Positions 25,876-63,113 of a DNA stretch of 64,000 nucleotides are shown piece by piece; position 1 is the stretch's first letter; each line of letters begins with the position of its first letter. The stretch comes from Acidobacterium sp. (GTDB taxonomy: Bacteria; Acidobacteriota; Terriglobia; Terriglobales; Acidobacteriaceae), in NCBI GenBank assembly GCA_003131625.1, contig PKVY01000059.1, forward strand, positions 62,001 through 126,000, written 5' to 3'. The notes below the pieces were generated by a model. The model worked only from the letters and a program-made list of their open reading frames with translations, did no database searches and was not told the origin of the DNA. Position numbers and translations under genes: made by a program.

Positions 25876-28800
25876 TCAATAAGCGGTGGAAGTAATGGTG
25901 AAGGCAGCCCAGAAAAAGGGTGCAGACGTGGGCTGGTTGCGCATGATCTTTACTTGGCTTCTGCGTAATGCCTCGCGTGGGTCGAGGTTTTCGCGGAGCA
26001 TTCCGCTGTAGAACGCGATCATGAGTTCTTTCGTGGTCTCATCATCCACGCTCCAAAGCGTGGAAACAACGTGCTTAGCTCCAGCGCTGAGGAAAGCATG
26101 GTTGAGGCCGGTCACACCCTCCCCGCTGAGGTTGTCGCCGGCCGCTGAGTTGCAAGAGCTGAGCACCACGAGATCAGATCGCAAATCGAGGTTTGCGATG
26201 TCGTGGGCTTTCAAGTAACCGAAGACCGGCTGACCGTATTGATCAACAAGTGAGAGAACAATTCCGGAAAAAGTCGGAATGCTTTCATCGAGTATGCCGT
26301 GCGTGGCCAGATGCAGAATCCTGTACTCGCTCAACGGTGCGGCGAAAAGCGTTTGCAAGTTAGCATCGAAATCAAGGTAGATAGCCGTGCGCTCAGGGCC
26401 AGCGAGGGCGGCAATTGCCTTGGCTTCATCGCGCGTGCCGAGTAGGCGTTTGAGCGCTGGAGCGATCGACAGGAGACTGCTGTTCCCGGGTGAATCCCTG
26501 ATGCTGTGCACGCGAGGATCGTTAGGATCAAAGACTGGATCCGCAAGTATCGCCACGTCGCCTCGGAAGGAAACCTGCTCAGACGGCTCACGCGGCGCCA
26601 AAAGAACTGAGATTGAAGGCGTCAGAACGACTTGGTGATCTATGGCAATTGGCTGCCGTCCGCCTTCGCAGCCACTCTCAGGTAAGGCCGCGAATGGCAG
26701 CAGGTCAAGCTCGCCATCGGGCACAATCGTCAGATCTTTCATGCGCGTCGTAAGAAATGGCGCTAGCAGGATGCAGGACAGATTGGCGGCAACGTGCGGC
26801 AGATTCCTGTCGGCAGCTTCGACGCGCTGGCGATGCTCCTCAAAGCGTTCCCGGGCTCGTGGAATTCGCGCTGTTGCTAGCTCGCGCCACTTTCTTACGG
26901 CTGCTTCGATAATGCGTCTCGCCGGCAGAACATAGCTGTCGATCTTGCCCCTGTCGATCACCCAAACATAACTGTGTTCTGTTCCCAGAGCGTACTCTAC
27001 CAAAGTGGAATCGAGGTTCCGGCTCCTCTCCACGATTTCGACAGCCGAGAGCGTCCGGTTTGAGAGCAAGGCAGAGTCGGCAGCCGTGGTCTTCTGCTCG
27101 TCTTCCGCACGTTCTAGCGAATCGATCGCTTGGGTAAGCGCGGCTGCATTGGCGTCCAGTTCGCGTTTGTGTCCGCCTTCCAACATCAGTTTGAGCCGCT
27201 GGTCGTACGCGCGATCGACAGCACGATGCAATTCGAATGATGCTTGGAAGAGAGAGCCCGATGCTGCGCTTCGCTTTTTCCCAAGGGCATCGGAATCGCG
27301 TGTCGCCAAGGCGTCAAGCAGCGTGAGCGCCCTGCCCGACTCGCTGACTTCAAGCGCCTGCGCAGCGGGGGCCGTGGAAGATGGTTTCCGTTCCTGATCG
27401 CGCATCAGAACTTCGATGAGGAGTTCGTGACACTGGCGCACGTGGGCAAAGTAAGCGGCCTGCAAATCCGCGTTGCGCACTGCGCGCCTTTGCGCCTCGA
27501 TACCGTCGAGCGCAGTCCGGAGATCGCGTTTGGCGTCTTCGTTTCGTTCTGCATCGAATTCGGACTGCGCAATCCTGTAGTGAGCCTCGATCTGCACTTC
27601 GGGGTCCGCGGCAGACCGGCTGAGCGGCAGTACCGCTTCGAATAGGCGGCGGGCCTTGTCCCGGTGACCCAGGAGTTCGAGGACACCTCCCCAGTCCATG
27701 AGCGCGCGCGCCTGGAGCCCCGGATTGCCTATGCTGCCGCTCAGGTCGGACGCGCGCCGGAAGCTTGCAATCGCCTGCTCATTCTGGCCCAGCGCGTGCT
27801 GAACGTCCCCGAGCCGCAGGAATGCAGTCGCGGTCCATTTCAGGTGATGAAAGGGCTCGAAAAGCGTAACCGATTTCTGGCAATTTCCCAGAGCTTCGTA
27901 GAGGCGGCCCGCGCGCATTTGGAATTCGCACAGTTGGCTCAATTCGTACGACACGCCTGCTTCTCTGGCTTTGCCTTCGATTTTGCGCGCAATCTGCATG
28001 GCCTGCTCTGTGTAGGCAATCGCATCTGGGATTTGGTTCAGCGCGCCATAGTCGTCGGCGATGTCCGTCAGCAAATACTCAAGATAGGTGAGTTTGCCGG
28101 ATTGCTGGATCAGGGGAATGATGCTCGACTGCCGCACCAGAGCGATGTAGGGATCACCGCTGAATTGCTGGTTGTTGGCCATATCCGATAAGCCGATGGC
28201 CGCGTCACGGCTGTCCCCAGCTCTTTGAAACAGGACTTCGGCACGCTGCAGCAGGCCAAGTGCGTTCGTCATCTTACGTTCGTCCTGCTCGATCCAGGCA
28301 CTGCAACGGAGAGCCCGCGCCAGTGTCTCCGTGGCATGAGCATGAGTGCTTAATCGGACTGCTTTCTCGATATCGACATTCTCGGCGGAAGCAAATCTCC
28401 AATACTCTGACTCGGCTCGGTCTGCCAGCGAATCGGCCTTCAGCCACTCGTCGCTCAATGCGCTGCTCTGGCGTATGGCTTCCTCGGCATAGCGGCCGGC
28501 CGATTTACTGTCCTCCCGCTCCAGATAAAGCTGCGCCTGGAGATTGGCAACCCATGCCCGAAAGAAGGCCCTCCGAGCGCAAAACATCCGGGCGCGCTCC
28601 AGCGCGGCGAGTGCGGCTGGATAATCGCTCAGCTCAAGCCAGGCCTGCGACTCTCCGGCTAGTGCGAGCAACTCTCCTCCCCGATCGCCGACTGCCGCCC
28701 ACGCCTTCCCTGCTTGCCTGAAGCGCGCAATGGAGGCTCGCACCGGCGCTTCCTGCGGCGAGCCAGCGAGCGACCGCGCGGCAGCAAAGGCGGCTTCCGC

Positions 28801-29244
28801 CTCTCGAAGCCCTTTGACGCTCGCAGCAGAGAATGTCTGAAGCTCGAGGCGAAACGACGCCCCATCGGCATCGTCCGCGGCGGACCTCATGCGAGCAACC
28901 AGCCGGTATTGTCCTGTCTCAGCGCAAGGAAATGAAAGGGCCAGCCATTGAGGCAGCTCGACCTCGGACCCGCTGAGTTGTTGGCCGCCTGGTGAGAGAA
29001 CGGCGAACTCGAGCCCGGGAGCGCTGGTTTCGATCAAGATTTCGGCTTCGCGCCCGCCTGTGGCGTCGAGCCTTAGGACCAGCGAATCTCCCCTGTTGAG
29101 ACTGAAGAAAGTCGGCACGTGCGGAAGCAGGGTGCCACTAGGTTCCTGCGCTCCGATGCCTACCGAACCTGCAGTTAAGAAGAAAAAAATGACAAAGTAG
29201 CGCAATGAGCGGAACTCTTCGCAGTGCTTCCGGGGAAGCCACAT
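25876..29244 (-). CDS. TPR-CHAT caspase-like peptidase with N-terminal signal/anchor
   Basis: 1122 aa. Residues 14-34 (LRYFVIFFFLTAGSVGIGAQ) form a signal peptide or anchor. Residues 40-150 are a beta domain like those preceding many extracellular peptidases. About 160-650 are tetratricopeptide-type helical repeats (for example ALNQIPDAIAYTEQAMQIAR). The C-terminal 300 residues form a CHAT domain with the catalytic dyad His982 (HLATHGI) and Cys1031 (LSSCNSAAGD). CHAT enzymes are caspase-fold proteases, some activated by partners binding the repeats, as in TPR-CHAT/Csx29 and gasdermin systems. It is the third gene of an operon with the GHQSS-repeat protein (19 nt upstream) and the C11 peptidase. 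Export would separate it from that cytoplasmic peptidase. Confidence 0.9.
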   Translation of the reverse strand: MWLPRKHCEEFRSLRYFVIFFFLTAGSVGIGAQEPSGTLLPHVPTFFSLNRGDSLVLRLDATGGREAEILIETSAPGLEFAVLSPGGQQLSGSEVELPQWLALSFPCAETGQYRLVARMRSAADDADGASFRLELQTFSAASVKGLREAEAAFAAARSLAGSPQEAPVRASIARFRQAGKAWAAVGDRGGELLALAGESQAWLELSDYPAALAALERARMFCARRAFFRAWVANLQAQLYLEREDSKSAGRYAEEAIRQSSALSDEWLKADSLADRAESEYWRFASAENVDIEKAVRLSTHAHATETLARALRCSAWIEQDERKMTNALGLLQRAEVLFQRAGDSRDAAIGLSDMANNQQFSGDPYIALVRQSSIIPLIQQSGKLTYLEYLLTDIADDYGALNQIPDAIAYTEQAMQIARKIEGKAREAGVSYELSQLCEFQMRAGRLYEALGNCQKSVTLFEPFHHLKWTATAFLRLGDVQHALGQNEQAIASFRRASDLSGSIGNPGLQARALMDWGGVLELLGHRDKARRLFEAVLPLSRSAADPEVQIEAHYRIAQSEFDAERNEDAKRDLRTALDGIEAQRRAVRNADLQAAYFAHVRQCHELLIEVLMRDQERKPSSTAPAAQALEVSESGRALTLLDALATRDSDALGKKRSAASGSLFQASFELHRAVDRAYDQRLKLMLEGGHKRELDANAAALTQAIDSLERAEDEQKTTAADSALLSNRTLSAVEIVERSRNLDSTLVEYALGTEHSYVWVIDRGKIDSYVLPARRIIEAAVRKWRELATARIPRARERFEEHRQRVEAADRNLPHVAANLSCILLAPFLTTRMKDLTIVPDGELDLLPFAALPESGCEGGRQPIAIDHQVVLTPSISVLLAPREPSEQVSFRGDVAILADPVFDPNDPRVHSIRDSPGNSSLLSIAPALKRLLGTRDEAKAIAALAGPERTAIYLDFDANLQTLFAAPLSEYRILHLATHGILDESIPTFSGIVLSLVDQYGQPVFGYLKAHDIANLDLRSDLVVLSSCNSAAGDNLSGEGVTGLNHAFLSAGAKHVVSTLWSVDDETTKELMIAFYSGMLRENLDPREALRRSQVKIMRNQPTSAPFFWAAFTITSTAY

Positions 29245-29263
29245 CGAACGCTACCTCACGGAG

Positions 29264-29656
29264 TTATGGTTGAACGGGGCCTGGAGGAGTGGTTGCTGCC
29301 CGGCGAATATTGCCATCCGAGTCGTATGTGCCGTCCACATCGGTGCCGTCCCCCTCGTCATCACTATCGGAACCGATGTCCCCAGTTTGCGACGCGGTTA
29401 ATACTCCAGCCGGCCAACGAACTGTCAGGTTCACTTCTGCGTCGCCTGCCGGGCCGAATGTCTCGACAGTTGCGCGGAGCACCACACCCGCTGTTCCCGC
29501 ACTGAGTTGATATTGTCCTTCTTCGGGGTGGTGTCCTGAGCTTTGGTGTCCCGAGCTTTGGTGTCCCGAGCTTTGGTGTCCCGAACTTTGGTGTCCCGAA
29601 CTTTGGTGCCCCAAGTGGCCCGGTGCGATCCTCTTTGTGCTGCCGATGCGTGCCAT
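29264..29656 (-). CDS. Small GHQSS-repeat protein, candidate peptidase substrate or regulator
   Basis: 130 aa with no known family. Residues 16-40 are five perfect GHQSS repeats after a basic start (MARIGSTKRIAPGHL). Residues 48-85 form a beta-like segment (YQLSAGTAGVVLRATVETFG). Residues 91-112 are strongly acidic (DIGSDSDDEGDGTDVDGTYD) and recall calcium-binding loops. A dibasic NIRRAATTPPG tail ends the protein. An ATG with a GAGGAG site lies at 29656. It is encoded between a C11 peptidase gene (60 nt upstream) and the CHAT peptidase gene. Clostripain-family enzymes cleave after arginine, so the RR site is a plausible cut site. That role is inference. Confidence 0.7.
   Translation of the reverse strand: MARIGSTKRIAPGHLGHQSSGHQSSGHQSSGHQSSGHQSSGHHPEEGQYQLSAGTAGVVLRATVETFGPAGDAEVNLTVRWPAGVLTASQTGDIGSDSDDEGDGTDVDGTYDSDGNIRRAATTPPGPVQP
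29537..29611 (-). repeat. Five tandem 15-bp units encoding GHQSS
   Basis: The plus-strand unit is tgagctttggtgtcc with one- or two-base variants (gag/gaa, tcc/cct), five times without gaps. Because protein identity is kept while codons vary slightly, the repeat is probably selected at the protein level. Confidence 0.9.
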
Positions 29657-29716
29657 TTCTTCTGCTCCTCGGTAGAGTTTTGGGATTCTGTGCTTCGTTT
29701 TCGTTCTTGCAATGCT

Positions 29717-31093
29717 TCAGTGGGCATTGGTGAGAGGAACCACCAGTGCATGCTGTCGGCGCAGTTCCGCGGCTGCGTCGTGCATTGCCACCAGAAATTT
29801 ATCCCAACCTGTGCTCACTGCGAACCTGCTTTCCGGGTAGCCTCTGCGCAAGTACGCGATCGATCGCTCCCTTTCCATCATCTTAATGTTCGTGAACTGG
29901 ATCCATGATGGAAACCAGATTGACAGACCGTTCGATTGCATGAGCTTTATCTTGCTCCCCTTTGGCGAATAGTCCCAATCGACAACGAACTTTTCCAAGT
30001 CCTTGATTGTCTGGTCGCAGGCCTTGTCTACTTCCGGGTCCCGCAATGTGATCTTCAAAAACCTGCAGAAGCAGCCAAGATCGAGGAACCCGTCCGGATC
30101 ATAGATCGGGGAGTAATTCCGCGCTTCAAGAATATTCACGACTCCCCCGGGCTTCGAGACCGCCTTAGTAAGTACGCCAGCCAGGTACTTGATGGCTTGC
30201 TGTAGCTCGCCCATCAGAGATAGCTCAAGGGTAGAGATCGCCAGATAATCATCTCTGTCACCGGCGTAGGACGCAATGAATCCCTTCTGGACTATCGCCG
30301 CAGCCGCTTTGGCATCATTCGGCGGATTTGCCACGAGCCCTTTCAGGATTGGGCCCAGAGGCCAGTCCCGATACGGTAGCGCCGTTTGCGATGCAATGCC
30401 AATCTCTGCGCAATCGGCTAGTTCACTCCAGGCTTCGGCCATCGCCATATTGCATGAGGCCAGTCCCAAAATGGCCGGCTTCTTGGTTTCCGGAAGCATC
30501 CGGGAGGCAGCCCTGATGGACCCGGCGACCTGCGCATTTGTAGGGTTCGTCCCGAGAGAATCGTCAGGAAGCAAGGTGACAATGCGTTCCGCCTCAGGAG
30601 ACAGCGGCGCGAGGGACAGGCCTGACAGCTGGGCCCTGAAATCTGTCCCTGATATCGGCCGGATTCGAGGCGCAACCATCTCCAGCGCCTGAACGCCTTG
30701 CCTATCCGTGTGTGAATGCAGCCCGGGGGGCATGAAATCGTCGATTCCATATCCATGCCCGCACAGCACGATCATCGTTTTCTGCGCCGGGCACGCGTTC
30801 GCAGACCACTTGAGGAAATCCGCAATGGACCGCAAGTTGAGCGAAGTCCCTGAAACCGTCGGCGATATCGCCAGCGGAGCCGACGCCGAGGGAACCTCCG
30901 GCAATATATAGCGCCGGGTCTTACTGTGCGGCAAGTTCATTTGCGCCGTCACATAGACATGGTCACTTGACCCCACATACGCCATCTGCACCAGGTTCTT
31001 AATCGCCCACGCGCGTGCTTGAGCCTCGGGTACGTCCGCAGCAAAGTAGACATACAGAGCCCACTCTTTGAGAGGCTTCGGTGTGTCAGTCAT
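29717..31093 (-). CDS. Clostripain-like cysteine peptidase (family C11)
   Basis: 458 aa, no signal peptide, so probably cytoplasmic. The caspase-like catalytic dyad is His113 in IVLCGHGYGIDDF and Cys214 in LGLASCNMAMAEAWSELA, with ASQTALPYRDWP completing the substrate pocket. The C-terminal half is helical with LMQSNGLSIWFPS, a typical C11 segment. Known C11 enzymes (clostripain, PmC11) are calcium-responsive, self-processing and arginine/lysine-specific. It is the first gene of the three-gene operon with the GHQSS protein and the CHAT peptidase, and an AAGGA ribosome site lies upstream. It is divergent from a sigma factor gene. Confidence 0.88.
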   Translation of the reverse strand: MTDTPKPLKEWALYVYFAADVPEAQARAWAIKNLVQMAYVGSSDHVYVTAQMNLPHSKTRRYILPEVPSASAPLAISPTVSGTSLNLRSIADFLKWSANACPAQKTMIVLCGHGYGIDDFMPPGLHSHTDRQGVQALEMVAPRIRPISGTDFRAQLSGLSLAPLSPEAERIVTLLPDDSLGTNPTNAQVAGSIRAASRMLPETKKPAILGLASCNMAMAEAWSELADCAEIGIASQTALPYRDWPLGPILKGLVANPPNDAKAAAAIVQKGFIASYAGDRDDYLAISTLELSLMGELQQAIKYLAGVLTKAVSKPGGVVNILEARNYSPIYDPDGFLDLGCFCRFLKITLRDPEVDKACDQTIKDLEKFVVDWDYSPKGSKIKLMQSNGLSIWFPSWIQFTNIKMMERERSIAYLRRGYPESRFAVSTGWDKFLVAMHDAAAELRRQHALVVPLTNAH

Positions 31094-31371
31094 GTCCTAT
31101 CCTTCGATCCCAACCAGCAAGAGGGAGAAGATGTAGCGGATAATAGCACGCATTACCGCGCGCACTAATCGATTTTTGGATTCAGCGCAAAGCGCCATCG
31201 AATGCCCTTAATGGAGATTGGGCAAAGGAGAATCCAAGAGACAAGCAGATCGAAAAAATAGACAACAGGTGAAGCAGATGCCACAATACGCTCGTCGCCT
31301 AATGCAGCTTGACGCCACATCCGCGGTCAAACCCGCGCTGGGCTGCGCCGTACCTTGGGTTCTCGATCACC
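31094..31371. promoter_or_regulatory. Divergent control region of peptidase operon and sigma factor
   Basis: The 278-bp gap between the C11 gene and the sigma factor gene must contain both promoters. It is AT-richer than its flanks (attaatcgatttttggattc-like stretch near 31165 and gatcgaaaaaatagacaaca near 31250). No clear -35/-10 pair was assigned. Confidence 0.4.
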
Positions 31372-31953
31372 ATGAAGACATCCGCCGAGCTCGACAATCT
31401 GCTCCTCTGGCTAGGACAGGACGCGGCTACGGGCGCCAGGCGTTACGTGGAACTCCGCCGGAAGCTCGTGACGCTATTTGCATTTCGGGGTTGCGAAGCG
31501 GCCGAAGAACTGGCCGACGAGACCATGGACCGCACGGCACGTACAATTCTCAAGCCAGGATTCTCATTTGAAGGCAATCCGATGGCTTACCTGCACGGCG
31601 TTGCGCGGAACGTGCATCTTGAGTACTTGCGCCGGAACCGCACGGTGAGCCAAGAGCTGTTGCCTGAACTTGCCGATTGTGTTGCTCAGCCATCTTCCGG
31701 CACTTCTGAGGTCGAGCAGCAACATAAATGCCTTGATCAATGTTTGGCGCGCCTGCCCAGAGAGAAGCGGTCCCTGTTGCTGCGTTACTATCGGGGTGAA
31801 AAATCGGCTAAGATCGACGCAAGGATGCAACTTGCTCAAGAAGAAGGGGTTGAAGTAACTACGTTGCGGATTCAACTCTTTCGCTTGCGGAAATCCCTTC
31901 GTCGCTGTGTAGAACGTTGCACCAGGTCCATGGAAATGGAAATGCGATTCTAA
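31372..31953 (+). CDS. Sigma-70-family (ECF-like) sigma factor
   Basis: 193 aa. Region 2 covers residues 20-95 (AAEELADETMDRTARTIL, then NPMAYLHGVARNVHLEYLRR, the -10 recognition helix). Region 4 covers about 115-180 (CLARLPREKRSLLLRYYRG, with VEVTTLRIQLFRLRKSLRRC as recognition helix). The ATG at 31372 is chosen because an upstream in-frame codon would add 21 non-conserved residues. The following gene encodes a membrane protein 27 nt downstream, the usual place for an anti-sigma factor. The divergent peptidase operon is the obvious candidate regulon. Confidence 0.82.
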   Translation: MKTSAELDNLLLWLGQDAATGARRYVELRRKLVTLFAFRGCEAAEELADETMDRTARTILKPGFSFEGNPMAYLHGVARNVHLEYLRRNRTVSQELLPELADCVAQPSSGTSEVEQQHKCLDQCLARLPREKRSLLLRYYRGEKSAKIDARMQLAQEEGVEVTTLRIQLFRLRKSLRRCVERCTRSMEMEMRF

Positions 31954-31980
31954 GCACTCTAATCGTATACGCGATTCGAA

Positions 31981-32874
31981 ATGTTCACGGACGAAAAATA
32001 TCGCGCGTTCATTCTGCGGATGGCCGATGCTGAAACTGAGGCCGCTATCGAGGAAGGAATTCTCGACGGCCGGATTGACCCAGATCACCTTCGACAGATT
32101 GAGGAAGAGTTGATCGACGATCATCTCTTTGGGCTTCTTTCGACAGAAGAAGAGCCCATTTTTCGCTCGGAGTTTCTCTCAGCCCCTGAGCGCCTCCGTA
32201 AGCTAAATTTTGCCGCTGTTTTGAAGGAACATGCTACCCGGCAGACGCCGGAAGTAAGGCGCAGCACTGTCTTTGGGAAGCTTCGTGGAATGGTAGCAAA
32301 GCCCTGGCTTCTTCCGCCTGCTACGGCCATGATTTGTGCGGTACTGGCCATCGTATGGCTCGCGGACCGCAATTTGAGCTTGAGCCACGAGTTGAGCCAG
32401 CTGACCCATGAGAACGACGAGCATCAGCGGGTAATCGCATCCATGCAAGCGGAGCAGCAGCTCCGTGCTAGTCATTCCTCCCCTTCTATTCGTCCGACCG
32501 AGACTCTGCCAAGTCCGGTGGCCATCGAAGATCAGACATCCATTATCGAATTGTCTCCGGGAGTAAACCGTGGTCTCGCCGTCGTACCCGTATTGAACCT
32601 TAAGAAACGAGCAAGCACCGTCACCATCGTGTTGGAACTTCCATTCGCGCCAGAGGCCACCGTCCGCGAAGAATTGCGAAACTCGAATAACAAACAAATC
32701 TGGAGCCAGCAATTCTCCGACCCCTCCGGCATCTCGACCCATGGACTTTCCACCATCGTGCTTCCGGCACGGCTATTCGCCACCGGCGAATACCGCTTGC
32801 GCGTCGAAGCAGACGCCGACGGAGATGAGCCCCCGAGCAGGGCAATCTATTTGTTTCGCGTCCGAAAAGACTAA
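31981..32874 (+). CDS. Single-pass membrane protein, possible anti-sigma factor
   Basis: 297 aa. Residues 1-100 are hydrophilic, acidic and helical (the position of an anti-sigma domain, although no zinc motif HxxxCxxC is present). One transmembrane segment lies at about 110-130 (LLPPATAMICAVLAIVWLA). It is followed by a short coiled coil (LSHELSQLTHENDEHQRVIA) and an extracytoplasmic beta-rich domain ending YRLRVEADADGDEPPSRA. That order fits an anti-sigma sensor, supported only by layout and position after the sigma gene. Confidence 0.65.
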   Translation: MFTDEKYRAFILRMADAETEAAIEEGILDGRIDPDHLRQIEEELIDDHLFGLLSTEEEPIFRSEFLSAPERLRKLNFAAVLKEHATRQTPEVRRSTVFGKLRGMVAKPWLLPPATAMICAVLAIVWLADRNLSLSHELSQLTHENDEHQRVIASMQAEQQLRASHSSPSIRPTETLPSPVAIEDQTSIIELSPGVNRGLAVVPVLNLKKRASTVTIVLELPFAPEATVREELRNSNNKQIWSQQFSDPSGISTHGLSTIVLPARLFATGEYRLRVEADADGDEPPSRAIYLFRVRKD

Positions 32875-37080: not shown

Positions 37081-38262
37081 ATGGATCAGCGTCAGTCACG
37101 CATCGCCGCCTACGTTCGCGAAATCGCCCGCCGCGATGGCCGCACCCTCGACAGCTTTGAAGTCCGCCCCCCCCAGTTGCCCGCTGTCTCCATCGGTGAC
37201 CTCGTCCTCGGCGTGCGCCTTTCCGGCAAGCCGCGCGACGTTGCTCCGATCAAAGCCCTCGAGTCTCAGCTCCGTCCTCCGCTGGCCATCCTCGGCGGAA
37301 GCAAGCCTGCAGGCGCGAAGCGCACCAAGGCCGCCCGCGCTCCCCACGTCGACCTCCCGCTGGCCGCCGTCTCCCCGGACCTCTCCATCACTCCCGAAGC
37401 CGCCGACGCCTTCCAGCGCGCCCTCGCCGACAAACCCATCTCCTCCCAGGACGCCAATCACCTCGAAAGTGTCATCATTCCCACCCTCCGCCCGGCATTC
37501 GACATCATCGACGAAACCTACGCCCAACTCCCCGGCGACTGGGATCCCTGGAATCGCGCCCGCGCCACCGTCGAGCCTCTCCTCCGCGGCGTCGGCCGCC
37601 TCCAGCTCACCGGCCATCCCAGCTATACCCTCGTCGGTACCGGTTTCGTCTGCGGACCCAATACCATTGTCACCAACCGTCATGTCGCCCAGATCTTCGT
37701 CCAAGGCATCGCCGCCGGAAACCAGCTAACCTTCTCCCCCGGCGTCACCTGCGCCATAGAGATGCTCGCTGAAGTCGGCTCTCCCAAATCTCTCCCCCTT
37801 AACGTCACCCAGCCTCTCGTTGTCTCCACGCTGTGGGACATCGCGCTCCTCCGTGTCGACGCACTGCCCGCCGGCGTTTCCCCCCTGCCCCTGGCCGGCG
37901 CCGCACCCGCCTCCCTTGCCGGAGGTATAGCCACCATTGTCGGTTACCCCTCCTACGACCCCTACGAGAGCTTCGTCGATCAGGCAAACATCTTCCGCGC
38001 CATCTTCGACCGCAAGCGCTTCCAGCCCGGCCGCCTCAACGGCCGCACCGACGTCTCCTCCTTCGGCCGCACCGTCAGCGCCATCGCACACGACTGCTCT
38101 ACCCTCGGCGGCAACTCCGGTTCCGCCCTCATCTCCGCCGAACCCGTCCACGTCGTCGGAATTCACTTCTCCGGCATCACGCACCTCTCCAACTACGCCA
38201 TCCCGACCTGGGAGCTCAAGTCCGACCCCGCATTCGCCGGGCAACACTTCAACTTCGTCTGA
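37081..38262 (+). CDS. Trypsin-like serine peptidase
   Basis: 393 aa. Residues 1-175 are an N-terminal region of unknown function (Pro/Ala-rich, with PPLAILGGSKPAGAKR). The chymotrypsin-fold domain follows with His201 (VTNRHVAQIF), Asp253 (TLWDIALLRVD) and Ser346 (LGGNSGSALI), the complete S1 triad, plus VVGIHFSG as the end of the barrel. No signal peptide is seen, so it is probably cytoplasmic, as with the trypsin modules of bacterial conflict systems. It shares C-rich wobble use with the helical protein 14 nt upstream. Confidence 0.85.
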   Translation: MDQRQSRIAAYVREIARRDGRTLDSFEVRPPQLPAVSIGDLVLGVRLSGKPRDVAPIKALESQLRPPLAILGGSKPAGAKRTKAARAPHVDLPLAAVSPDLSITPEAADAFQRALADKPISSQDANHLESVIIPTLRPAFDIIDETYAQLPGDWDPWNRARATVEPLLRGVGRLQLTGHPSYTLVGTGFVCGPNTIVTNRHVAQIFVQGIAAGNQLTFSPGVTCAIEMLAEVGSPKSLPLNVTQPLVVSTLWDIALLRVDALPAGVSPLPLAGAAPASLAGGIATIVGYPSYDPYESFVDQANIFRAIFDRKRFQPGRLNGRTDVSSFGRTVSAIAHDCSTLGGNSGSALISAEPVHVVGIHFSGITHLSNYAIPTWELKSDPAFAGQHFNFV

Positions 38263-38912
38263 GCTGGTAGGACCTCGCCTCCCCTAGACGGAGACAGGCG
38301 CTGCGGCGGGGAAACGCACAGCGAGAAATCATGCAGCACCGTAACCCCTTCAACTCGCTCGGCTTATAGGCGATTTTGTGGATCGACACTGAAAAACGGG
38401 GCCAAGGTCTAGCGATCTGCCAGAGGCTGTCAATGAGCGTTTAATCGCTTATTTTCATAGACATTGGGACGGACCATTGGGCCTTCGTAGGTCACGCATT
38501 CGAAGCCGCCCTCACGCCATTCGCACTATTTCATGGTGCCCGGAGGGGGACTTGAACCCCCACGACCGGTTAAGGTCTGCGGATTTTAAGTCTCTCAAGA
38601 ATGCCGTAAGTCTATGATAAATAGGCGAAATTTGGCGTAATGTTGAATTTCCGCAAGTGACAGTCTATCAGTAATTTAGCTCAATTCTCCGTAATCAAGC
38701 CAAACTGATGGCTGTACCCGAATCTGTACCCGAATCCTGGACAGATGACACTTTCCAGATCCTATTCCTCGGCCTCCCCCTTGCCTGCTAATCGCAAGGT
38801 AATCCTTCTATTATGAATGGATAGGCATTCAAGAAAATTGACTGAATCCGCTGCGGGTGGCCAGGTTCGATGCCAAGAGCGCCGAGATCTTGCAGGGGGT
38901 TCGGAGGTTGCA
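38263..38912. other. 650-bp element junction without a gene
   Basis: The gap holds the second tRNA-Leu fragment (38534-38592), an AT-rich stretch after it, and a short tandem repeat at about 38711-38737 (two copies of gtacccgaatc with a spacer base). No coding frame with family motifs is seen. The repeat could be an integrase arm site or integrase-gene remnant, but nothing confirms it. Confidence 0.5.
38534..38592 (-). tRNA. Second 3' fragment of a tRNA-Leu(UAA)
   Basis: On the minus strand: GACTTAAAATCCGC (anticodon loop and 3' stem strand), a variable arm, GGGGGTTCAAGTCCCCC, TCCGGGCACCA. The first 31 bases on the plus strand (from tggtgcccgg) are identical to those at 24794. The shared ctgcggattttaagtc core recurs too, but the variable arm differs, so this came from a different allele or element. 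The 5' half of the tRNA is absent. It delimits a 13.7-kb segment together with the fragment at 24794. Confidence 0.8.
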
Positions 38913-40016
38913 GTGAGCGCAAGCCGGAATTCCACCCCGCTATACGAAGCCATCCGCAGTTTGGTGTTGTCGGCTCGTCAGAGCGCCGCGCGCGGCGTTA
39001 ACCTGCTTCAGGTATACACCAACTACGAGATTGGCCGACGTATCTTCGAGCAGGAACAGCAGGGCGCCGACCGCGCTCAATATGGCAAGGAGATCGTCCG
39101 TGAACTGGCTACCCGGCTGACCGGCGAGTTCGGAAGCGGTTTCTCGAAGTCCAATCTTGAATATATGCGCCGGTTTTATCTTGCCTATCCGGGGCGAACA
39201 CCACAGATTGCCCAGACGGCGTCTGGGCAATTCCCAGCTTTCGCAATCGCCCAGACAGTGTCTGGGCAATCCCAGGATGCCAGCGGCCAATCGCAGCCGC
39301 CTTTTTCTCTGAGTTGGTCACACTATGTATTCCTGATCGGTCTCAAAGAGGAGGAACGCAACTTCTACGAGATTGAGGCAGCCCAGCAGGGTTGGACTCT
39401 GCGCGAACTCCGACGCCAATTCGATGCCGGCCTCTATGAGCGGCTGGCTCTCAGCCGCAACAAGCAGGCGATCCGCGACCTGGCACGGCAGGGGCAGCAC
39501 GTCGCCAAGCCGCAAGACCTGCTCAAAGACCCTTACGTGCTGGAGTTTCTCGGCATTGAAGAGAAGGCCCGCTACTCCGAGTCCGATCTGGAGTCGGCCA
39601 TTGTCACCCACATTGAAAACTTTCTGCTCGAATTGGGAAAGGGATTCCTTTTTGAAGCCCGGCAAAAGCGGTTCACCTTCGACGAAGAGCACTTCTTCGT
39701 CGATTTGGTGCTCTACAACCGCCTGCTCCGGAGCTACGTGCTTATCGACCTGAAAATTGGCAAGCTCTCGCATCAGGACCTAGGCCAGATGCAGATGTAC
39801 GTCAACTACTTTGACCGCCACGTCAGGACGGAAGCAGAAAACCACACAATCGGCATCGTCCTTTGCAAGAAGGAGAACTCCGCTCTGGTCGAGATTACTC
39901 TCCCAAAAGATGCCAATATTCACGCTCGCGAATACCAACTCTACTTGCCCAGCAAGGAAGAACTGCAACAAAAGCTCGTGGAATGGACGGGAGAGCAGGA
40001 TGGGCCTGTTGAGTAA
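38913..40016 (+). CDS. DUF1016/YhcG-family PDDEXK nuclease
   Basis: 367 aa. The N-terminal DUF1016 helical domain contains YEIGRRIFEQEQQGADRAQY, then YMRRFYLAYP, and continues after a linker with LSWSHYVFLIGLK. The C-terminal nuclease domain has FVDLVLYNRLLRSYVLIDLK (the PDDEXK core, D...D-x-K), QMQMYVNYFD and GIVLCKKE. Family members are restriction-like nucleases found in defence islands and mobile elements. The GTG at 38913 after GGAGG is preferred to the ATG at 38817, which adds 32 unusual residues. Residues 98-129 are a repeated linker from palindromic DNA. It precedes the BREX-like cassette on the same strand. Confidence 0.88.
   Translation: MSASRNSTPLYEAIRSLVLSARQSAARGVNLLQVYTNYEIGRRIFEQEQQGADRAQYGKEIVRELATRLTGEFGSGFSKSNLEYMRRFYLAYPGRTPQIAQTASGQFPAFAIAQTVSGQSQDASGQSQPPFSLSWSHYVFLIGLKEEERNFYEIEAAQQGWTLRELRRQFDAGLYERLALSRNKQAIRDLARQGQHVAKPQDLLKDPYVLEFLGIEEKARYSESDLESAIVTHIENFLLELGKGFLFEARQKRFTFDEEHFFVDLVLYNRLLRSYVLIDLKIGKLSHQDLGQMQMYVNYFDRHVRTEAENHTIGIVLCKKENSALVEITLPKDANIHAREYQLYLPSKEELQQKLVEWTGEQDGPVE
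39208..39270. repeat. Two near-identical palindromes inside the DUF1016 gene
   Basis: Positions 39208-39230 form a perfect hairpin (ttgcccagac, loop ggc, gtctgggcaa). Positions 39246-39270 repeat it with one G-U pair and loop agt. They encode IAQTASGQ and IAQTVSGQ in a linker between the helical domain halves. A third partial copy reads DASGQSQ. Confidence 0.85.
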
Positions 40017-40145
40017 AACCGAGAGGAACGCGAAACGATGTCGGCACGGGATGACGGCTAGTTGGAAGCTTGCTACACGGGGGCTCGAAGTTCAGTAACC
40101 GGCAGGTAATTCAGCGACAAACTTATCCATTGGAGGACAGCAACA

Positions 40146-40280
40146 ATGCAACGTCCTGATCTGCTGGAGCATAATTGTTCAACGGGTTTCGACACAAAAC
40201 TTCAACACGAAAATAGGAACGCGACTGCTCTCTTTGGGTTCTGTGCACTACCGAGAAGCAGGTCGGCCTTGGAAAAATGA
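40146..40280 (+). CDS. Possible 44-aa leader peptide before the BREX-like cassette
   Basis: The frame starts at an ATG after TTGGAGGACAGCAACA, a good ribosome site, and ends 43 nt before the DUF499 gene. The peptide begins MQRPDLLEHNCSTGFDT and has no family match. It may be a real small protein, a regulatory leader or chance. The rest of the 40017-40323 gap shows no gene and probably holds the cassette promoter. Confidence 0.25.
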   Translation: MQRPDLLEHNCSTGFDTKLQHENRNATALFGFCALPRSRSALEK

Positions 40281-40323
40281 CCTCACGAAATCCGACCCAA
40301 AATGCAGAAATGGTGAACTTGAC

Positions 40324-43110
40324 ATGGCACATCTCGAATTAAGGCAAGAGTTTCAGGGCCGCCACATGCGTGGGACAGCAATTGAGCTGTCGAACCGCCA
40401 GAACACGGGATGGGCTCAAAGCCAGAACGCTTCTGCCATTCTTGAGATCACTTACCCGAGCTCCGATGTACGCAGAGCACTCGAAGCAGTATCGACCAGT
40501 TCATCTGGCAAGTCCGTCGTCATGATCGGCCAACGAGGCAGTGGCAAGTCTCACATCATGGCTTTAATACACTACGCATTTGAGTCCCCGGAGGCAGTCG
40601 AACAATGGGCCAGTAGTTGGGGGACTCGACTTGCTCTGCCTAAACTGGCCGAACTCAAGTTGCAGAGGGGTTTCAAAGCAATCTCTGAAACCCTTTCGAA
40701 CGCGGAATTCCCAGTTCTGTGGGATGTACTCTTTGAGCGGCATCCACGAGGGGCATACTACAGAGGCCGCTTTGAGCAGTCCGGGAGTCTCGTTCCGTCA
40801 AAATCGCTGATCCAAGATATGTTCGGCGAGCAGAAAACCGCACTGATTTTGGACGAACTTCAAACATGGTACGACGGCCTCCACAACGAGCCAGGTCCAG
40901 AGGGGAAGAAGCATCTGCAATGGGCGTTCAATTTCATTCAGATTCTTTCCGAGATTGCAGAAGACCGGCCGGATCTGTTTAGCCTGATAGTTTCAGTTCG
41001 CGATAATACAACGGATGCTTTTCAGCAGATTCATCGAAAAGGTCCAGTTGTCATCGATTTTAAGGGGGAGACCGCACGAGAGGATCGCAAGCGCCTGGTC
41101 TTGCACCGTCTTTTCAAGAATAGGAGCAACATACCGTCAGCCACTATTGAGCAAACGGTTTCAGTGTACGCGAAAGAGCGCAATCGCTTACTTTTCGCCG
41201 AGCGAAGTCCCGCAGACCAGACGAGGCTTGCTGAAGAATGCGTGGAGTGTTGGCCCTACTCCCCGGAATTGCTCAGCCTGCTTGAAGATCAGATTCTTAT
41301 GGCAGCAGCAGCCCAAGACAGTCGAGACTTCATAAGAATGCTGGCGGAGGTTTTTCGTGCGCGGAGCGCTTCCACCTCTATCATCACCCCAGCCGACTTC
41401 TCAATTGACGATGATGAATGTGGCGTAACGACGCTCATTGACTCATTTGCAACGAGTGCTGATCAAGAGCGCCTCCGTGAAAAGGCAATAAGAAATCTGA
41501 GCGCACTGAAAGAAGCAAATGTTGCAGCCCCTCACATGCGGGAAGTGATTTCTAGTATCTGGGTGCGCTCGCTCTCCTCTGTACAAGCCGGAGGCGCTAC
41601 CCGACGCGAGGTTCAGCTAGATCTCACCAGCACAATTCCTGTCGATGACAACGCTTTTACCGCGGAGCTCGCAGAGATCGTCGAGAACAGTTTCAATATT
41701 CACGAAGGAGGCTTGCACGAGAAAAGATATTGCTTCCGTCTTCCCGAGAATCCAGAGTCCAAACTGAAGGCTTGGGCACGCAATGACCGCGCGTTTGATC
41801 CGCAGACAGCCACCGCCCCAGGACTAATGGCGATTGGACGCGACCAAGAATTCCTTTGCAAATTCATAAACCATTATTTGAAAACACCCGACCTTGCAAG
41901 AGAGCTTCCTTCGCAAGTTGTTGTCCTTGATGTGAACTGGGCAAACGCGCCTTGGGCGAACATACAGCAGCAAGAGCAGCCCGCAAGCTGGACTGAAAAG
42001 GGAAAACCCGTCTTGATAGTTCTGCCATGTTCCCCCGGAGATGTTTCTGGGGTATTGGGACCGTGGCTCGTGAACTATGTACCGCAGAACCGAAATATGA
42101 TTCGCTTCTTACTTCCCAAAGCAGACCAACCCGAAATCTATGCGGATCGCAGTCTATTGATTACGGCAAGGTGCGCACTCTTAGCGCGAGAGTGGCAGCA
42201 GACTGAACCTCAGTACCGAGACATGCAAAAGCGATTCGAAGCTGCACTGTCAACAGACCTCAAGAGTCGCTTTGATCGCTACGCTCTTCTGGCAACGTGG
42301 AATTTTCAAACGCCTTCTGCGTGCACATTCCATGTTGATTCCCATGGAGCCACAGGATCGGATATTTCCGCTGGCGTGGAAAGGCATGTGCGAGAGAACC
42401 ACTTTGCTCCAGAGGACTTTGAAAAGATCACATTGGAAGCGGCAGGCCGGGGCGATACCATGCGCCAACTGTTGACGCAGCTTCGAGAGCCACCGTTGCC
42501 TGGAGAACTTGCAATCCCTTACCTTGGCGATCTCCCTATTTTCGAGAACGTTCTTCGTATCGTCGCCAAAGGAAAAATTGCTGTGAATGCGGGCGGACGT
42601 TGGTACGGCCGGGAGCCGGACGAGTCCTATGAAACCGCAGACGTGCGGCTTCGCCAAAGGCTCGGAGCTTTTAGCGGACAGGCCATGCTGGCAGTTCAGC
42701 TTGGTGACGTTTCTCAGGTTGGCGGCGGCGGCGTGGCCGTTCCAGCCAATCCAACGCAGCCAATCCCTCAGCCACTTACTCCATATACGCCACAGCCTCT
42801 GCCTGGCGGAGGAACACCCCCGAGTGGAACACAGCAACCGCCGCCATTTGTTCCTACGCCGATACCTATCCCAGATCCAGTGCCGGCACCTCCGGTTGTT
42901 CGACGCTCTATGGGAGCCAAGACAGGGATTAACCTGCTTGGCGATCTCGAAAAATGGGCGCTACCAGACAACCAAAAGGCAACACAAGCTTCGCTCACTT
43001 TCAATGGGTTGACGGTCAAGGAAATTCGCGACTTGTGCCTGAAGCTTCCGCCAAAGCTACAGGCCGAGCTCCAGGTAATCCTTCCGCCTGAGAATGGAAA
43101 TGCTTCATGA
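40324..43110 (+). CDS. DUF499-family AAA ATPase (BrxC/PglY-like)
   Basis: 928 aa. Walker A lies at residues 69-77 (GQRGSGKSH) and Walker B is TALILDELQTW, followed by SLIVSVRDNTTDAFQQI, typical of large DUF499 ATPases found with DNA-modification defence loci. The middle is mostly helical. Residues 810-880 are a proline-rich linker (QPLTPYTPQPLPGGGTPP), and the last 60 residues are a small helical end (LLGDLEKWALPDNQKAT). The ATG at 40324 is preferred to upstream alternative codons. Its stop overlaps the PglZ-like start as ATGA, so translation is coupled. Role by analogy: ATP-dependent core subunit of a BREX-like phage defence complex. Confidence 0.85.
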   Translation: MAHLELRQEFQGRHMRGTAIELSNRQNTGWAQSQNASAILEITYPSSDVRRALEAVSTSSSGKSVVMIGQRGSGKSHIMALIHYAFESPEAVEQWASSWGTRLALPKLAELKLQRGFKAISETLSNAEFPVLWDVLFERHPRGAYYRGRFEQSGSLVPSKSLIQDMFGEQKTALILDELQTWYDGLHNEPGPEGKKHLQWAFNFIQILSEIAEDRPDLFSLIVSVRDNTTDAFQQIHRKGPVVIDFKGETAREDRKRLVLHRLFKNRSNIPSATIEQTVSVYAKERNRLLFAERSPADQTRLAEECVECWPYSPELLSLLEDQILMAAAAQDSRDFIRMLAEVFRARSASTSIITPADFSIDDDECGVTTLIDSFATSADQERLREKAIRNLSALKEANVAAPHMREVISSIWVRSLSSVQAGGATRREVQLDLTSTIPVDDNAFTAELAEIVENSFNIHEGGLHEKRYCFRLPENPESKLKAWARNDRAFDPQTATAPGLMAIGRDQEFLCKFINHYLKTPDLARELPSQVVVLDVNWANAPWANIQQQEQPASWTEKGKPVLIVLPCSPGDVSGVLGPWLVNYVPQNRNMIRFLLPKADQPEIYADRSLLITARCALLAREWQQTEPQYRDMQKRFEAALSTDLKSRFDRYALLATWNFQTPSACTFHVDSHGATGSDISAGVERHVRENHFAPEDFEKITLEAAGRGDTMRQLLTQLREPPLPGELAIPYLGDLPIFENVLRIVAKGKIAVNAGGRWYGREPDESYETADVRLRQRLGAFSGQAMLAVQLGDVSQVGGGGVAVPANPTQPIPQPLTPYTPQPLPGGGTPPSGTQQPPPFVPTPIPIPDPVPAPPVVRRSMGAKTGINLLGDLEKWALPDNQKATQASLTFNGLTVKEIRDLCLKLPPKLQAELQVILPPENGNAS

Positions 43111-44099
43111 CGACCTCGAATGCGGAATGGATTGACATCATTCTGGGCAAAACTGATGCTGCGACGAAGTGGCAGAAAATCTTCGACGCTTTGCGAGATG
43201 CAGCACTCCTGTCCTCAAAATTGGGCGCTCTGGACCGTGTGACAGTAGCGCCAGACCAGCTTTTAGCAAACTCGGCCTGGAATCTCTGGGATGAATTTCT
43301 TCATCATGCTCCCTTGGCTATCGATGAGCTGAAGAAGTTCTGGGTGGCGCCGAAACCCTCCGGACGGGCAATCCTCATATTGGATGGACTCTCACTGCGT
43401 GAGCTGCCAATCATTGTGAATGCCGCCAAGGAACGAGGCATCGTACCGGTTCGCGTTGAAGCTCGCGGTTCTCAGCTTCCCACGGAAACAGATCGCTTCG
43501 CGGAGGCGCTTGGCGTATCGAGCCGTTCCAAACTACGCAACAACCAGGCTCCCGCCACTTTCCTTTTTAGTGGGCAAGATACCTATTCCACTGTCCTTGA
43601 AAGTCCTTTTGCCGACTGTTTCGGCGAAGTGACATCGCATCCACATCTTTTCTATTGGCACACTTGGCCGGACGAACCGCTCATTCATGGCAATGCTCAA
43701 AAGGACGATGCACTTTCTCTGCTCACCATGCAGACCAAACGCCAACTTGCCGGAGGGGACTTCTGGGCATTCATCGACCGGCTCAGACAAGGACGCAGCC
43801 TAGTCATCACGGCAGACCACGGTTACGCCCATAGCCACTCATTTTCGGACGAAGTGCAGGATTCGGAAACAATCCAGCTCCTTCGCAATACATTCGGCGC
43901 AAAGCGGAACTCTGTAGAATCTCCCAATGCTCCTTGGCCGCGGCACCATCTGCCGCCGCTGGTCGCAAAGTTTTCAGGCCGTCTCGCGGTCATCGGCCAG
44001 CGCAAATGGTCGGTTCAGGGTGGCTTCCCTCACCTTTGTCACGGTGGTCTGTCTCTGCTTGAGGCGGCTGTTCCCTACATTGAACTACCAGAGCTGTAA
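43107..44099 (+). CDS. Short PglZ-like phosphatase domain protein
   Basis: 330 aa. It has the alkaline-phosphatase-superfamily metal motifs expected of PglZ: Asp93 in ILILDGLSL and Asp237-His238 in VITADHGYAH, with HTWPDEP between and a late HGGLSLLEAAVPYIELP. BREX PglZ proteins are usually about 800 aa, so this is a minimal version reduced to the catalytic domain. Translation is coupled to the DUF499 gene (ATGA overlap), and the methyltransferase gene follows 12 nt later. PglZ is needed for BREX modification and defence; its substrate is unknown. Confidence 0.82.
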   Translation: MTTSNAEWIDIILGKTDAATKWQKIFDALRDAALLSSKLGALDRVTVAPDQLLANSAWNLWDEFLHHAPLAIDELKKFWVAPKPSGRAILILDGLSLRELPIIVNAAKERGIVPVRVEARGSQLPTETDRFAEALGVSSRSKLRNNQAPATFLFSGQDTYSTVLESPFADCFGEVTSHPHLFYWHTWPDEPLIHGNAQKDDALSLLTMQTKRQLAGGDFWAFIDRLRQGRSLVITADHGYAHSHSFSDEVQDSETIQLLRNTFGAKRNSVESPNAPWPRHHLPPLVAKFSGRLAVIGQRKWSVQGGFPHLCHGGLSLLEAAVPYIELPEL

Positions 44100-44111
44100 A
44101 GGCCAAATACG

Positions 44112-47744: not shown

Positions 47745-47777
47745 CTTCGGGAAATCTTGAAGTGAGAGGAGCAGCCC

Positions 47778-48281
47778 ATGCAGGAGATGACAGCACACAG
47801 TTGGAAGCGGCGCGGATGCAGTCTCGTGTGGTCGCCGGATCTTCTTCGAGACTTGATAACAGGCATCGAGGCAACGCCGCTTGATGTCGTTGTCGAATGG
47901 CAGCGTTCCGGATTCCCGGAAGATACACCCGCTGGCGCAAACACCGTGCTTGTCGGAGGGTTGCAAACGGTCCTGAATGTAATGCCGGATGCCGAAGCCT
48001 CTTATGCTTGGTTGCGTACCAATATTCTCCCGTTATGCCGCAAATGGACCAATCATTGGCCTCGCGTTGGCCTTGTATTCGGTATGGATGGTCCGGGCAG
48101 GCGCTTCGAGCTGAATGAAGCTGATGATTTGGTTTACTTTGGCCGCGAGCCGGAACGGAACAACAAGGTTTGTCTGACGCGGGCCATTTGGAATGGCGCA
48201 GCCACCGGCACAGGTGTCTTCAAATTGATGCAAGAAGGCTCACGGGAGATTGGTGGATTCCATGTCGTTAAAGTCTCCTAG
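47778..48281 (+). CDS. Unknown 167-aa component of the BREX-like cassette
   Basis: 167 aa between the methyltransferase and the helicase, 33 nt after the first and overlapping the second by 20 nt, so it is part of the operon. A GAGAGGA site precedes the ATG. The sequence (LVWSPDLLRDLITGIEATPL, HWPRVGLVFGMDGPGRRFEL, TGTGVFKLMQEGSREIGGFH) matches no family I know. It is not BrxA, BrxB or BrxF by motif: no P-loop is present. It has no membrane segment. Its constant position should help find its family. Confidence 0.75.
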   Translation: MQEMTAHSWKRRGCSLVWSPDLLRDLITGIEATPLDVVVEWQRSGFPEDTPAGANTVLVGGLQTVLNVMPDAEASYAWLRTNILPLCRKWTNHWPRVGLVFGMDGPGRRFELNEADDLVYFGREPERNNKVCLTRAIWNGAATGTGVFKLMQEGSREIGGFHVVKVS

Positions 48282-57501: not shown

Positions 57502-57527
57502 GCCGGTTGCTTCCACTTCGCCCCCTT

Positions 57528-57554
57528 GCGGACAGGGTTAACAGCCCTGTCCGC
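57528..57554 (+). promoter_or_regulatory. Perfect hairpin between ardC and parB
   Basis: Ten-bp stem GCGGACAGGG / CCCTGTCCGC with loop TTAACAG. No T tract follows, so it may be a processing or attenuation element, or a ParB/replication-protein site, more than a terminator. Confidence 0.6.
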
Positions 57555-57607
57555 TCAGACCTTACCTGTTAGACCAGCCGAAACCCGCTCCCAAGGAGAG
57601 AGCATCT

Positions 57608-63082: not shown

Positions 63083-63113
63083 ACTGCGCAATCTCCCGTT
63101 GCAAAACATCAAA

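What the first reader, a model, noticed from the sequence alone, without database searches (positions are those of the whole stretch)
25876..32874. Two caspase-fold peptidases flank a repeat protein, divergent from a sigma/anti-sigma-like pair
A C11 clostripain-like enzyme (His113/Cys214), a 130-aa repeat protein and a TPR-CHAT enzyme (His982/Cys1031) form one tight operon. Opposite lies a sigma-70-type factor and a one-pass membrane protein. The layout suggests a proteolytic cascade with its own transcription switch: signal at the membrane, sigma release, peptidase expression, cleavage of a dedicated substrate. I know of no described system with this gene set.
Basis: partly seen in the sequence, partly recalled or inferred. 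Interest (0 to 1): 0.8.

Follow-up and report, generated by a model that had tools for sequence, protein, structure and literature searches.

The report
Caspase-like protease switch on anti-sigma factor
Bacteria of one phylum repeatedly keep a gene switch (a sigma factor and its membrane-bound brake) beside, and sometimes fused to, a caspase-like protease, at times together with a second such protease that often carries strings of near-identical short peptides, which suggests an undescribed protease-controlled stress or defence circuit.

Summary
In detail: C11 peptidase, GHQSS-repeat ORF and TPR-CHAT peptidase in one tight run, divergent from an ECF-like sigma and a one-pass protein. It is one case of a module conserved in Acidobacteriota. 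Of 72 places with this sigma family in 297 genomes, 69 have the one-pass protein within 300 bp, 52 a CHAT within 5 kb (2.6 expected), 14 a C11 within 5 kb (0.13 expected). In five genera the one-pass protein and TPR-CHAT are one polypeptide; in two congeners of the window a differently built fusion lies between an ECF-like sigma and C11. GHQSS is in frame with C11, one TGA away; several relatives carry such repeats inside C11. Units mostly differ between genomes but within a tail vary mainly at third codon positions (83 of 116 variable columns). Best reading: a membrane anti-sigma controlled by an exported CHAT protease, C11 being a partner or downstream protease. All cleavage steps are inferred. 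Closest known: type III-E Csx29/Csx30/CASP-sigma, DegS/RseA, SAVED-CHAT.

The parts
25876..29244 (-). TPR-CHAT peptidase, 1122 aa: N-terminal signal-peptide-like segment, TPR, CHAT with His982/Cys1031
29264..29656 (-). GHQSS repeat ORF (130 aa), read as the detached C-terminal repeat tail of the C11 gene; in frame with it
29529..29612 (-). 15-bp tandem repeat, 5.6 copies, encoding GHQSS; its 3 variable columns are all third codon positions
29717..29719 (-). the single in-frame TGA between the C11 ORF and the GHQSS ORF
29717..31093 (-). C11 (clostripain-family) peptidase, 458 aa, His113/Cys214; Ala at the usual S1 Asp place (residue 212)
31094..31371 (.). divergent intergenic region between C11 and the sigma gene; no shared promoter motif recognised
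31372..31953 (+). ECF-like sigma factor (ATG start chosen; an open TTG start lies at 31309)
31981..32874 (+). one-pass anti-sigma-like protein: N-terminal helical part, TM about 109-125, C-terminal beta sandwich

Best explanation
A membrane-spanning sigma switch run by a caspase-fold protease. Steps: (1) the ECF-like sigma is held by the one-pass anti-sigma-like protein (inferred from near-invariant pairing; about 0.9). (2) The TPR-CHAT protein is exported and acts on, or as the outer half of, that anti-sigma, as in relatives where anti-sigma-like domain, TM, TPR and CHAT are one chain (same pathway about 0.85). (3) On an unknown signal read by the TPR part, CHAT clips the outer part of the anti-sigma, and further proteolysis frees sigma, as in DegS/RseA and as proposed for Csx29/Csx30 (inferred; about 0.45). 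(4) Sigma then drives the module and other genes (inferred; about 0.5; no promoter motif found). (5) C11, without a visible export signal, is the inner or downstream protease. Its tandem peptides are a conserved functional part: either C11's own cleavage substrate, releasing identical 5-10-residue peptides, or a multivalent docking tail (some function about 0.8; self-cleavage about 0.35). In the window this tail is split off as the GHQSS ORF.
For: Neighbourhood: 69/72, 52/72 and 14/72 against 2.6 (CHAT) and 0.13 (C11) expected; 12 of 19 C11 genomes have the sigma against 20 of the other 278 (Fisher 9e-9). C11 lies upstream of CHAT, same strand, next to it (in the window with the GHQSS ORF between), in 13 of 13 modules with both. 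Five fusions in five genera, each with a TM segment at 104-155 between anti-sigma-like domain and TPR-CHAT, all five with His and Cys. A differently built fusion with two HxxxCxxC motifs in two congeners, beside an ECF-like sigma and C11. 65 of 70 unfused one-pass proteins have exactly one TM segment. Tails: third-position variation in 83 of 116 variable columns, P 5e-17; two congeners add 13 of 14. 18 of 19 hand-compiled units hold K/R, 16 exactly one; PmC11 accepts Arg/Lys in P1 (PMC4850288).
Against: No cleavage, binding or expression data. No shared promoter motif in 83 upstream regions. 20 of 72 sigma places have no CHAT and 58 no C11 within 5 kb (a few lie at contig ends). The anti-sigma-like domain matches no curated family in the window; in the two fusions scanned only weak zf-HC2 (0.010, 0.011), and in the one scanned with NCBIfam an anti-sigma model at 2.8e-4, all below cut-offs. 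The window protein's model has mean pLDDT 57.8. Four of five fusions have further, weaker hydrophobic segments. Positive-inside counts are weak: 32 for N-inside, 20 against, 20 ties. GHQSS has no K/R, against self-cleavage, although this C11 also lacks the S1 Asp; L168, L171 and L174 lack it too yet keep K/R. The scan found tandem units at only 7 of 14 module loci, the window's separate ORF included. An Armatimonadetes C11 tail (L216) shows no third-position excess (1, 1, 0).
Confidence: 0.5

Rival explanations
1. CHAT and C11 are only output genes of an ordinary ECF envelope-stress switch; something else inactivates the anti-sigma, and the proteases act on other targets.
For: Gene order varies (four arrangements among 14 modules); 20 of 72 sigma places lack a CHAT within 5 kb; some genomes hold far more CHATs than sigmas of this family (G051: 54 CHAT matches, 5 sigma matches).
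Against: Anti-sigma-like domain and CHAT are one polypeptide in five genera and, built differently, in two congeners; an output gene need not be fused to the sensor.
Confidence: 0.25
2. A defence or suicide cascade like SAVED-CHAT: CHAT activates the C11 protease, which degrades many cell proteins during infection; the sigma pair only adjusts expression.
For: C11 next to and upstream of CHAT in 13 of 13 modules; SAVED-CHAT gives immunity by a proteolytic cascade (PMC11229360, passages); the window carries Gabija, YhcG (PDC-S02) and a DUF1156/SNF2 cluster within 31 kb.
Against: CHATs of the C11 modules begin with signal-peptide-like segments and C11 mostly does not, so they may not share a compartment; no CRISPR-like array in the window; no viral-contig relative of the sigma. 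Defence genes near the other loci were not tested.
Confidence: 0.2
3. The GHQSS ORF is an unrelated small protein and a dedicated protease substrate.
For: A GAGGAG ribosome-site-like stretch lies before its ATG and its post-repeat part has the GC3 of a gene (0.71).
Against: No convincing homologue in 297 genomes; in frame with C11 with one stop between; relatives carry repeats inside C11.
Confidence: 0.15

Closest known systems
Type III-E CRISPR Csx29 (TPR-CHAT) / Csx30 / CASP-sigma (PMC10028731, passages seen)
   Same: A TPR-CHAT protease, a sigma inhibitor and an ECF-type sigma in one locus; cleavage of the inhibitor by CHAT is thought to relieve inhibition of sigma.
   Different: No cas family over its cut-off among the five genes and no repeat array in the window; the inhibitor here is a one-pass membrane protein, sometimes fused to CHAT; the window CHAT scores 13.2 bits against a Csx29 cut-off of 300; C11 is extra.
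DegS/RseA/RpoE regulated proteolysis (as described in passages of PMC10028731)
   Same: Membrane anti-sigma whose cleavage by an envelope-sensing protease starts the release of sigma.
   Different: The candidate outer protease has the caspase fold with TPRs and can be part of the anti-sigma itself.
SAVED-CHAT / PCaspase of type III-B CRISPR (Steens 2024 not held; SAVED-CHAT seen in passages of PMC11417357 and PMC11229360; PCaspase recalled)
   Same: Two caspase-fold proteases encoded together, one of them CHAT (the second recalled).
   Different: No SAVED or cyclic-nucleotide part found in the window CHAT; here a sigma/anti-sigma pair and an export signal.
Metacaspase (C14) operons with sigma-70 genes in Myxococcus, Haliangium and others (PMC3501461, section 13 read)
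   Same: Caspase homologue beside a sigma factor, conserved between genera.
   Different: C14, not C11 or CHAT; the section mentions no anti-sigma and no repeat tail, and a term search of the main text found neither 'CHAT' nor 'anti-sigma'.
Clostripain / PmC11 (family C11; PMC4850288, passages seen)
   Same: Sequence family and His/Cys dyad; a profile of 12 relatives matches clostripain 9cip at 1.3e-35.
   Different: Tandem-peptide tail or insert in relatives; S1 Asp replaced by Ala in the window.

Membership tests
Peptidase family C11 (clostripain) | sequence match over the curated cut-off | tested here: met
   28.6 bits against 25.8; relatives' profile to 9cip 1.3e-35
Peptidase family C11 (clostripain) | His/Cys dyad | tested here: met
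   His113 and Cys214, invariant in 14 sequences
Peptidase family C11 (clostripain) | S1 Asp two residues before Cys (PmC11 Asp177) | tested here: not met
   Ala212 in the window; Asp in most rows listed, His or Asn in three other proteins
CHAT peptidase | CHAT domain with His/Cys dyad | tested here: met
   9.6e-61; His982/Cys1031; dyad kept in 61 of 64 CHAT rows at sigma loci, the other three being partial rows
ECF sigma factor | regions 2 and 4, score over a curated cut-off | tested here: inconclusive
   TIGR02937 39.9 against 42.9; TIGR02989 5e-18, below cut-off; Pfam r2 and r4 below cut-offs
Class I anti-sigma factor (ASDI) | N-terminal anti-sigma domain of four helices that binds sigma | tested here: inconclusive
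   five predicted helices of 11 or more residues before the TM helix, low pLDDT; weak anti-sigma matches only in fusions; binding not testable; definition from passages of PMC7406223
Class I anti-sigma factor (ASDI) | gene beside the sigma gene, often membrane-bound | tested here: met
   69 of 72 within 300 bp; 65 of 70 with one TM segment
Type III-E CASP (Craspase) | Csx29-type TPR-CHAT | tested here: not met
   13.2 bits against a cut-off of 300
Type III-E CASP (Craspase) | CRISPR array nearby | tested here: not met
   no such array in the 64-kb window at the settings used
SAVED-CHAT / PCaspase cascade | SAVED sensor on CHAT | tested here: not met
   TPR, CHAT and a weak C50 match were the families found
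SAVED-CHAT / PCaspase cascade | CHAT cleaves and activates the second caspase | not testable with these tools
   needs purified proteins

The most novel reading that the evidence does not exclude
C11 is a protease that carries its own poly-peptide precursor: a string of near-identical 5-10-residue peptides, mostly private to each genome and held by purifying selection, which C11 (or CHAT) cuts at the basic residue of each unit. The released peptides act as ligands, perhaps for the TPR domain of the exported CHAT on the anti-sigma, making a protease-made peptide signal that drives a sigma factor, comparable in logic to peptide-binding TPR receptors (recalled, not tested).
Probability: 0.2. Interest if true: 0.93.

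Novelty: new variant of a known kind. Interest (0 to 1): 0.76.

Why it matters
It would place caspase-fold proteases in transmembrane gene control outside CRISPR: one polypeptide holding the sigma inhibitor inside and a TPR-CHAT protease outside. It offers a non-CRISPR counterpart for the Csx29/Csx30/CASP-sigma arrangement and gives chromosomal CHAT proteases, of which some of these genomes hold more than 50, a defined candidate substrate to test. The C11 tails, with near-identical peptides kept within a gene but mostly different between genomes, are a separate puzzle that a simple cleavage assay can open.

Tried and rejected
Chance neighbourhood: rejected by counts against genome-wide expectation. 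Membership in type III-E CRISPR: rejected. GHQSS as a conserved substrate family: 20 of 297 genomes gave matches at 0.01 or better, the window's own included; the other 19 are weak (best 2.1e-5, over the repeat part) and I take them as low-complexity matches. Alternative reading frame of the repeat (units KVRDT/KARDT): considered because it has K/R in each unit and scores better over the repeat itself (3.2 against -9.3 bits); but the GHQSS frame scores better after the repeat (-0.1 against -7.3, the other frame meeting stops there), and all variable columns of the GHQSS units fall at its third positions. Kept as a minor doubt. Shared promoter motif: none above shuffles; my gene starts are rough, so this is weak. 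Viral spread: 69 pattern matches in viral contigs, none a relative of the sigma. Sigma tree: the C11 label needs 8 changes (at least 3 forced by well-supported branches), the fusion label 4 (at least 2); the bootstrap had not settled and one C11 locus (G259:C9) dropped out, so 71 of 72 rows were used. Fold search of the low-confidence anti-sigma model: generic Ig-like sandwiches. Third-position control: seven other tandem-repeat ORFs gave 6, 3 and 10 variable columns; one of the seven is itself a C11 tail (L216, Armatimonadetes: 1, 1, 0), and another overlaps the same DNA. Other phyla: searches with the one-pass profile failed and were dropped, so its presence there is untested. Literature: ten searches listed no paper that I recognised as describing this module; most subscription journals are not held. 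Passages of PMC3174227 (Solibacter genome) gave nothing on it.

Limits of method: ORFs were called by a longest-ORF rule, families by profiles grown from window seeds on the fetched loci, TM and signal segments by hydropathy only. The CHAT counts of G051 and G063 are lower bounds (54 of 66 candidates scored). The repeat units were compiled by hand, and some are related to one another.
Full report
Checking the observation. All five ORFs are present at the given coordinates. The CHAT protein carries TPRs and a clear CHAT domain (Pfam 9.6e-61) with His982 and Cys1031 in the expected motifs; the C11 protein matches Peptidase_C11 only just over its cut-off, with His113 and Cys214 as stated. A profile of 12 relatives matches solved clostripain at 1.3e-35, so the family call stands. 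The sigma is ECF-like but below the curated cut-offs shown. The one-pass protein matches nothing over a cut-off.

Phylum. Two contigs of genomes that the genome search lists as 'same phylum' have the exact lengths of named Acidobacteria contigs: G188:C210 and QHZE01000291.1 (6361 bp), G275:C5 and CADECP010000005.1 (260012 bp). I therefore write Acidobacteriota; this is an inference.

A conserved module. In 297 genomes of the phylum (own genome included in each count) the window's C11 has a match in 19, the sigma in 32 at 1e-10 (72 places), and the one-pass protein in 15 at 1e-5. CHAT is in 30 of the 31 other sigma genomes. I fetched the neighbourhoods, built local profiles and tallied. Of 72 sigma places, 69 have the one-pass protein within 300 bp, 52 a CHAT within 5 kb and 14 a C11 within 5 kb. 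From gene counts and genome sizes 2.6 CHAT and 0.13 C11 neighbours are expected (the CHAT counts of two genomes are lower bounds). Twelve of 19 C11 genomes have the sigma, against 20 of the other 278 (Fisher 9e-9). In all 13 modules with both, C11 lies upstream of and next to CHAT on the same strand (in the window with the GHQSS ORF between), while the sigma pair is found before, after, convergent or (window) divergent; the fourteenth module (L136) has a short C11 frame and no CHAT. In the sigma tree the C11 label needs 8 changes, of which at least 3 are forced by well-supported branches.

Fusions. In five genera (genomes G259, G291, G009, G075, G025) one ORF of 1170-1222 aa holds the anti-sigma-like N-terminus, a TM segment at 104-155, TPRs and CHAT; four of the five have further, weaker hydrophobic segments. 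His and Cys are kept in all five. In the window's own genus 3 of 11 other genomes gave a C11 match: in G302 it was weak, with stops, and no module was seen, while G298 and G303 have an ECF-like sigma, then a 1311- or 1226-aa ORF with two HxxxCxxC motifs, a TM, TPR and CHAT, then a convergent C11 (in G303 with a 130-aa ORF between). The G298 sigma passes the curated ECF cut-off, the G303 one does not. HxxxCxxC is the zinc motif (Hx3Cx2C) of many class I anti-sigmas (PMC7406223, passages); the Pfam zf-HC2 match is only 0.09 and in one of the two. These fusions are the main reason to place CHAT in the same pathway as the anti-sigma.

Topology. 65 of 70 unfused one-pass proteins have exactly one TM segment; 36 of 59 CHATs at sigma loci have an N-terminal hydrophobic segment; 17 of 18 C11 have none. 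Among the C11 modules 10 of 13 CHATs pass the test, and the other three look signal-peptide-like by eye. Charge counts around the one-pass TM favour N-inside only weakly (32 for, 20 against, 20 ties). CHAT is therefore probably outside and C11 inside, which speaks against the simplest CHAT-to-C11 cascade.

The one-pass protein. An AlphaFold2 model from three sequences (mean pLDDT 57.8) shows helices at 4-87, a long helix 113-165 and an eight-strand sandwich at 186-296, the part from residue 201 on with block pLDDT 65-89. Foldseek gives generic Ig-like sandwiches; the profile search gives CopC at 0.002 for the same part and, at 0.16, a conserved membrane protein chain 3hug_B for the helical part. 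I recall that chain as the anti-sigma RslA; the call does not say so.

The repeat tails. Several C11 relatives carry near-identical tandem peptides, C-terminal or as an insert: FPELGTKD, KAGQGNPE, SGALEPSDKS, GQEGSKLA, SSTRLGGSG, FPPTMGK and others. The automatic scan of 2318 ORFs flagged 6 of 14 module C11 proteins plus the window's separate GHQSS ORF; degenerate repeats in a few others are by eye. Tailed C11 genes also occur away from this sigma (L040, L042, L046, L193, L198). Over 15 tails the variable nucleotide columns fall 14, 19 and 83 at codon positions 1, 2 and 3 (binomial P 5e-17). Seven other tandem-repeat ORFs give 6, 3 and 10; one of them is a C11 tail of Armatimonadetes (1, 1, 0), which does not fit. 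Two congeners add 0, 1 and 13. The peptide thus seems held by selection within most tails, though it mostly differs between genomes. Of 19 hand-compiled units 18 hold K or R and 16 exactly one (shuffle P about 1.5e-4). PmC11 accepts Arg/Lys in P1, and an Asp two residues before the Cys is thought to be its primary S1 residue (PMC4850288, passages). In the window that Asp is Ala and the unit GHQSS has no K/R; suggestive, but three other C11 proteins lack the Asp and keep K/R units.

GHQSS. Its ORF is in the frame of C11, separated by one TGA and 20 codons without another stop. Its three variable columns are all third positions. I read it as the C11 tail, split off; whether it is made from its own start (a GAGGAG lies before the ATG) or by readthrough is open. 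It lacks the K/R-N motif that I see by eye near the C-terminus of many tailed relatives. An alternative frame is discussed under Tried and rejected.

Outside the phylum. All four genes were found only in L184 (Pyrinomonadaceae) and L196 (same sequence as L128), and three in L206 (Acidobacteriota). Among the 70 others the repeat scan flagged C11 in three (L216; L242 and L262 look low-complexity), one had a weak sigma match (L261) and five a CHAT match (L203, L212, L214, L218, L232).

Mechanism and rivals. The best reading is a membrane anti-sigma controlled by an exported CHAT protease, with C11 as a second protease whose tail is functional. Steps 1 and 2 rest on comparative evidence; steps 3-5 are inference. 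The chief rivals are CHAT and C11 as mere output of an ordinary ECF switch, and a defence cascade like SAVED-CHAT. The second gains some support from the window: Gabija, YhcG and a DUF1156/SNF2 cluster lie 6-31 kb downstream, in the lower-GC part of the window. Whether the other module loci sit near defence genes was not tested.

Against what is known. CHAT, a sigma inhibitor and an ECF-type sigma together are known in type III-E CRISPR (PMC10028731, passages); there the inhibitor is Csx30. Metacaspase (C14) operons with sigma-70 genes were noted in 2012 (PMC3501461, section 13 read). SAVED-CHAT works by a proteolytic cascade (PMC11229360, passages). The PCaspase detail is recalled; the paper is not held. 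The window CHAT fails the Csx29 and SAVED tests. In my ten literature searches I recognised no description of the Acidobacteriota module, the anti-sigma-CHAT fusion or the C11 peptide tails.

Noticed in passing
window 59364-63142 (-): Gabija pair: GajB (2e-244) and GajA (3e-233).
   Followed up: partly
window 38817-51036 (+): YhcG/PDC-S02 nuclease, then a 958-aa and a 330-aa protein without family match at the thresholds used, a DUF1156 methylase and an SNF2 helicase: a BREX/DISARM-like defence cluster by best PADLOC matches.
   Followed up: partly
window 56296-59233 (+): ArdC-like and ParB-like genes, suggesting an integrated element.
   Followed up: no
window 37081-38262 (+): Trypsin-like protein downstream of the sigma pair on the same strand; PADLOC 'nacht' match 5e-12.
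   Followed up: no
window 1-64000: GC falls from about 0.65 to about 0.54 across the window, with the finding at the transition.
   Followed up: no
L054 13675-18528: Second sigma / one-pass protein / CHAT module in the window's own genome.
   Followed up: partly
L216 7030-8499: Armatimonadetes C11 with a WGLPRFGA-type repeat tail, outside Acidobacteriota; its units show no third-position excess.
   Followed up: partly
L032 6598-11303: CHAT and C11 frames overlap, possibly a CHAT-C11 fusion or a frame break.
   Followed up: no
G275:C11:112874-116635: A C14 caspase domain lies about 2.5 kb from a sigma of this family that has no CHAT nearby.
   Followed up: no
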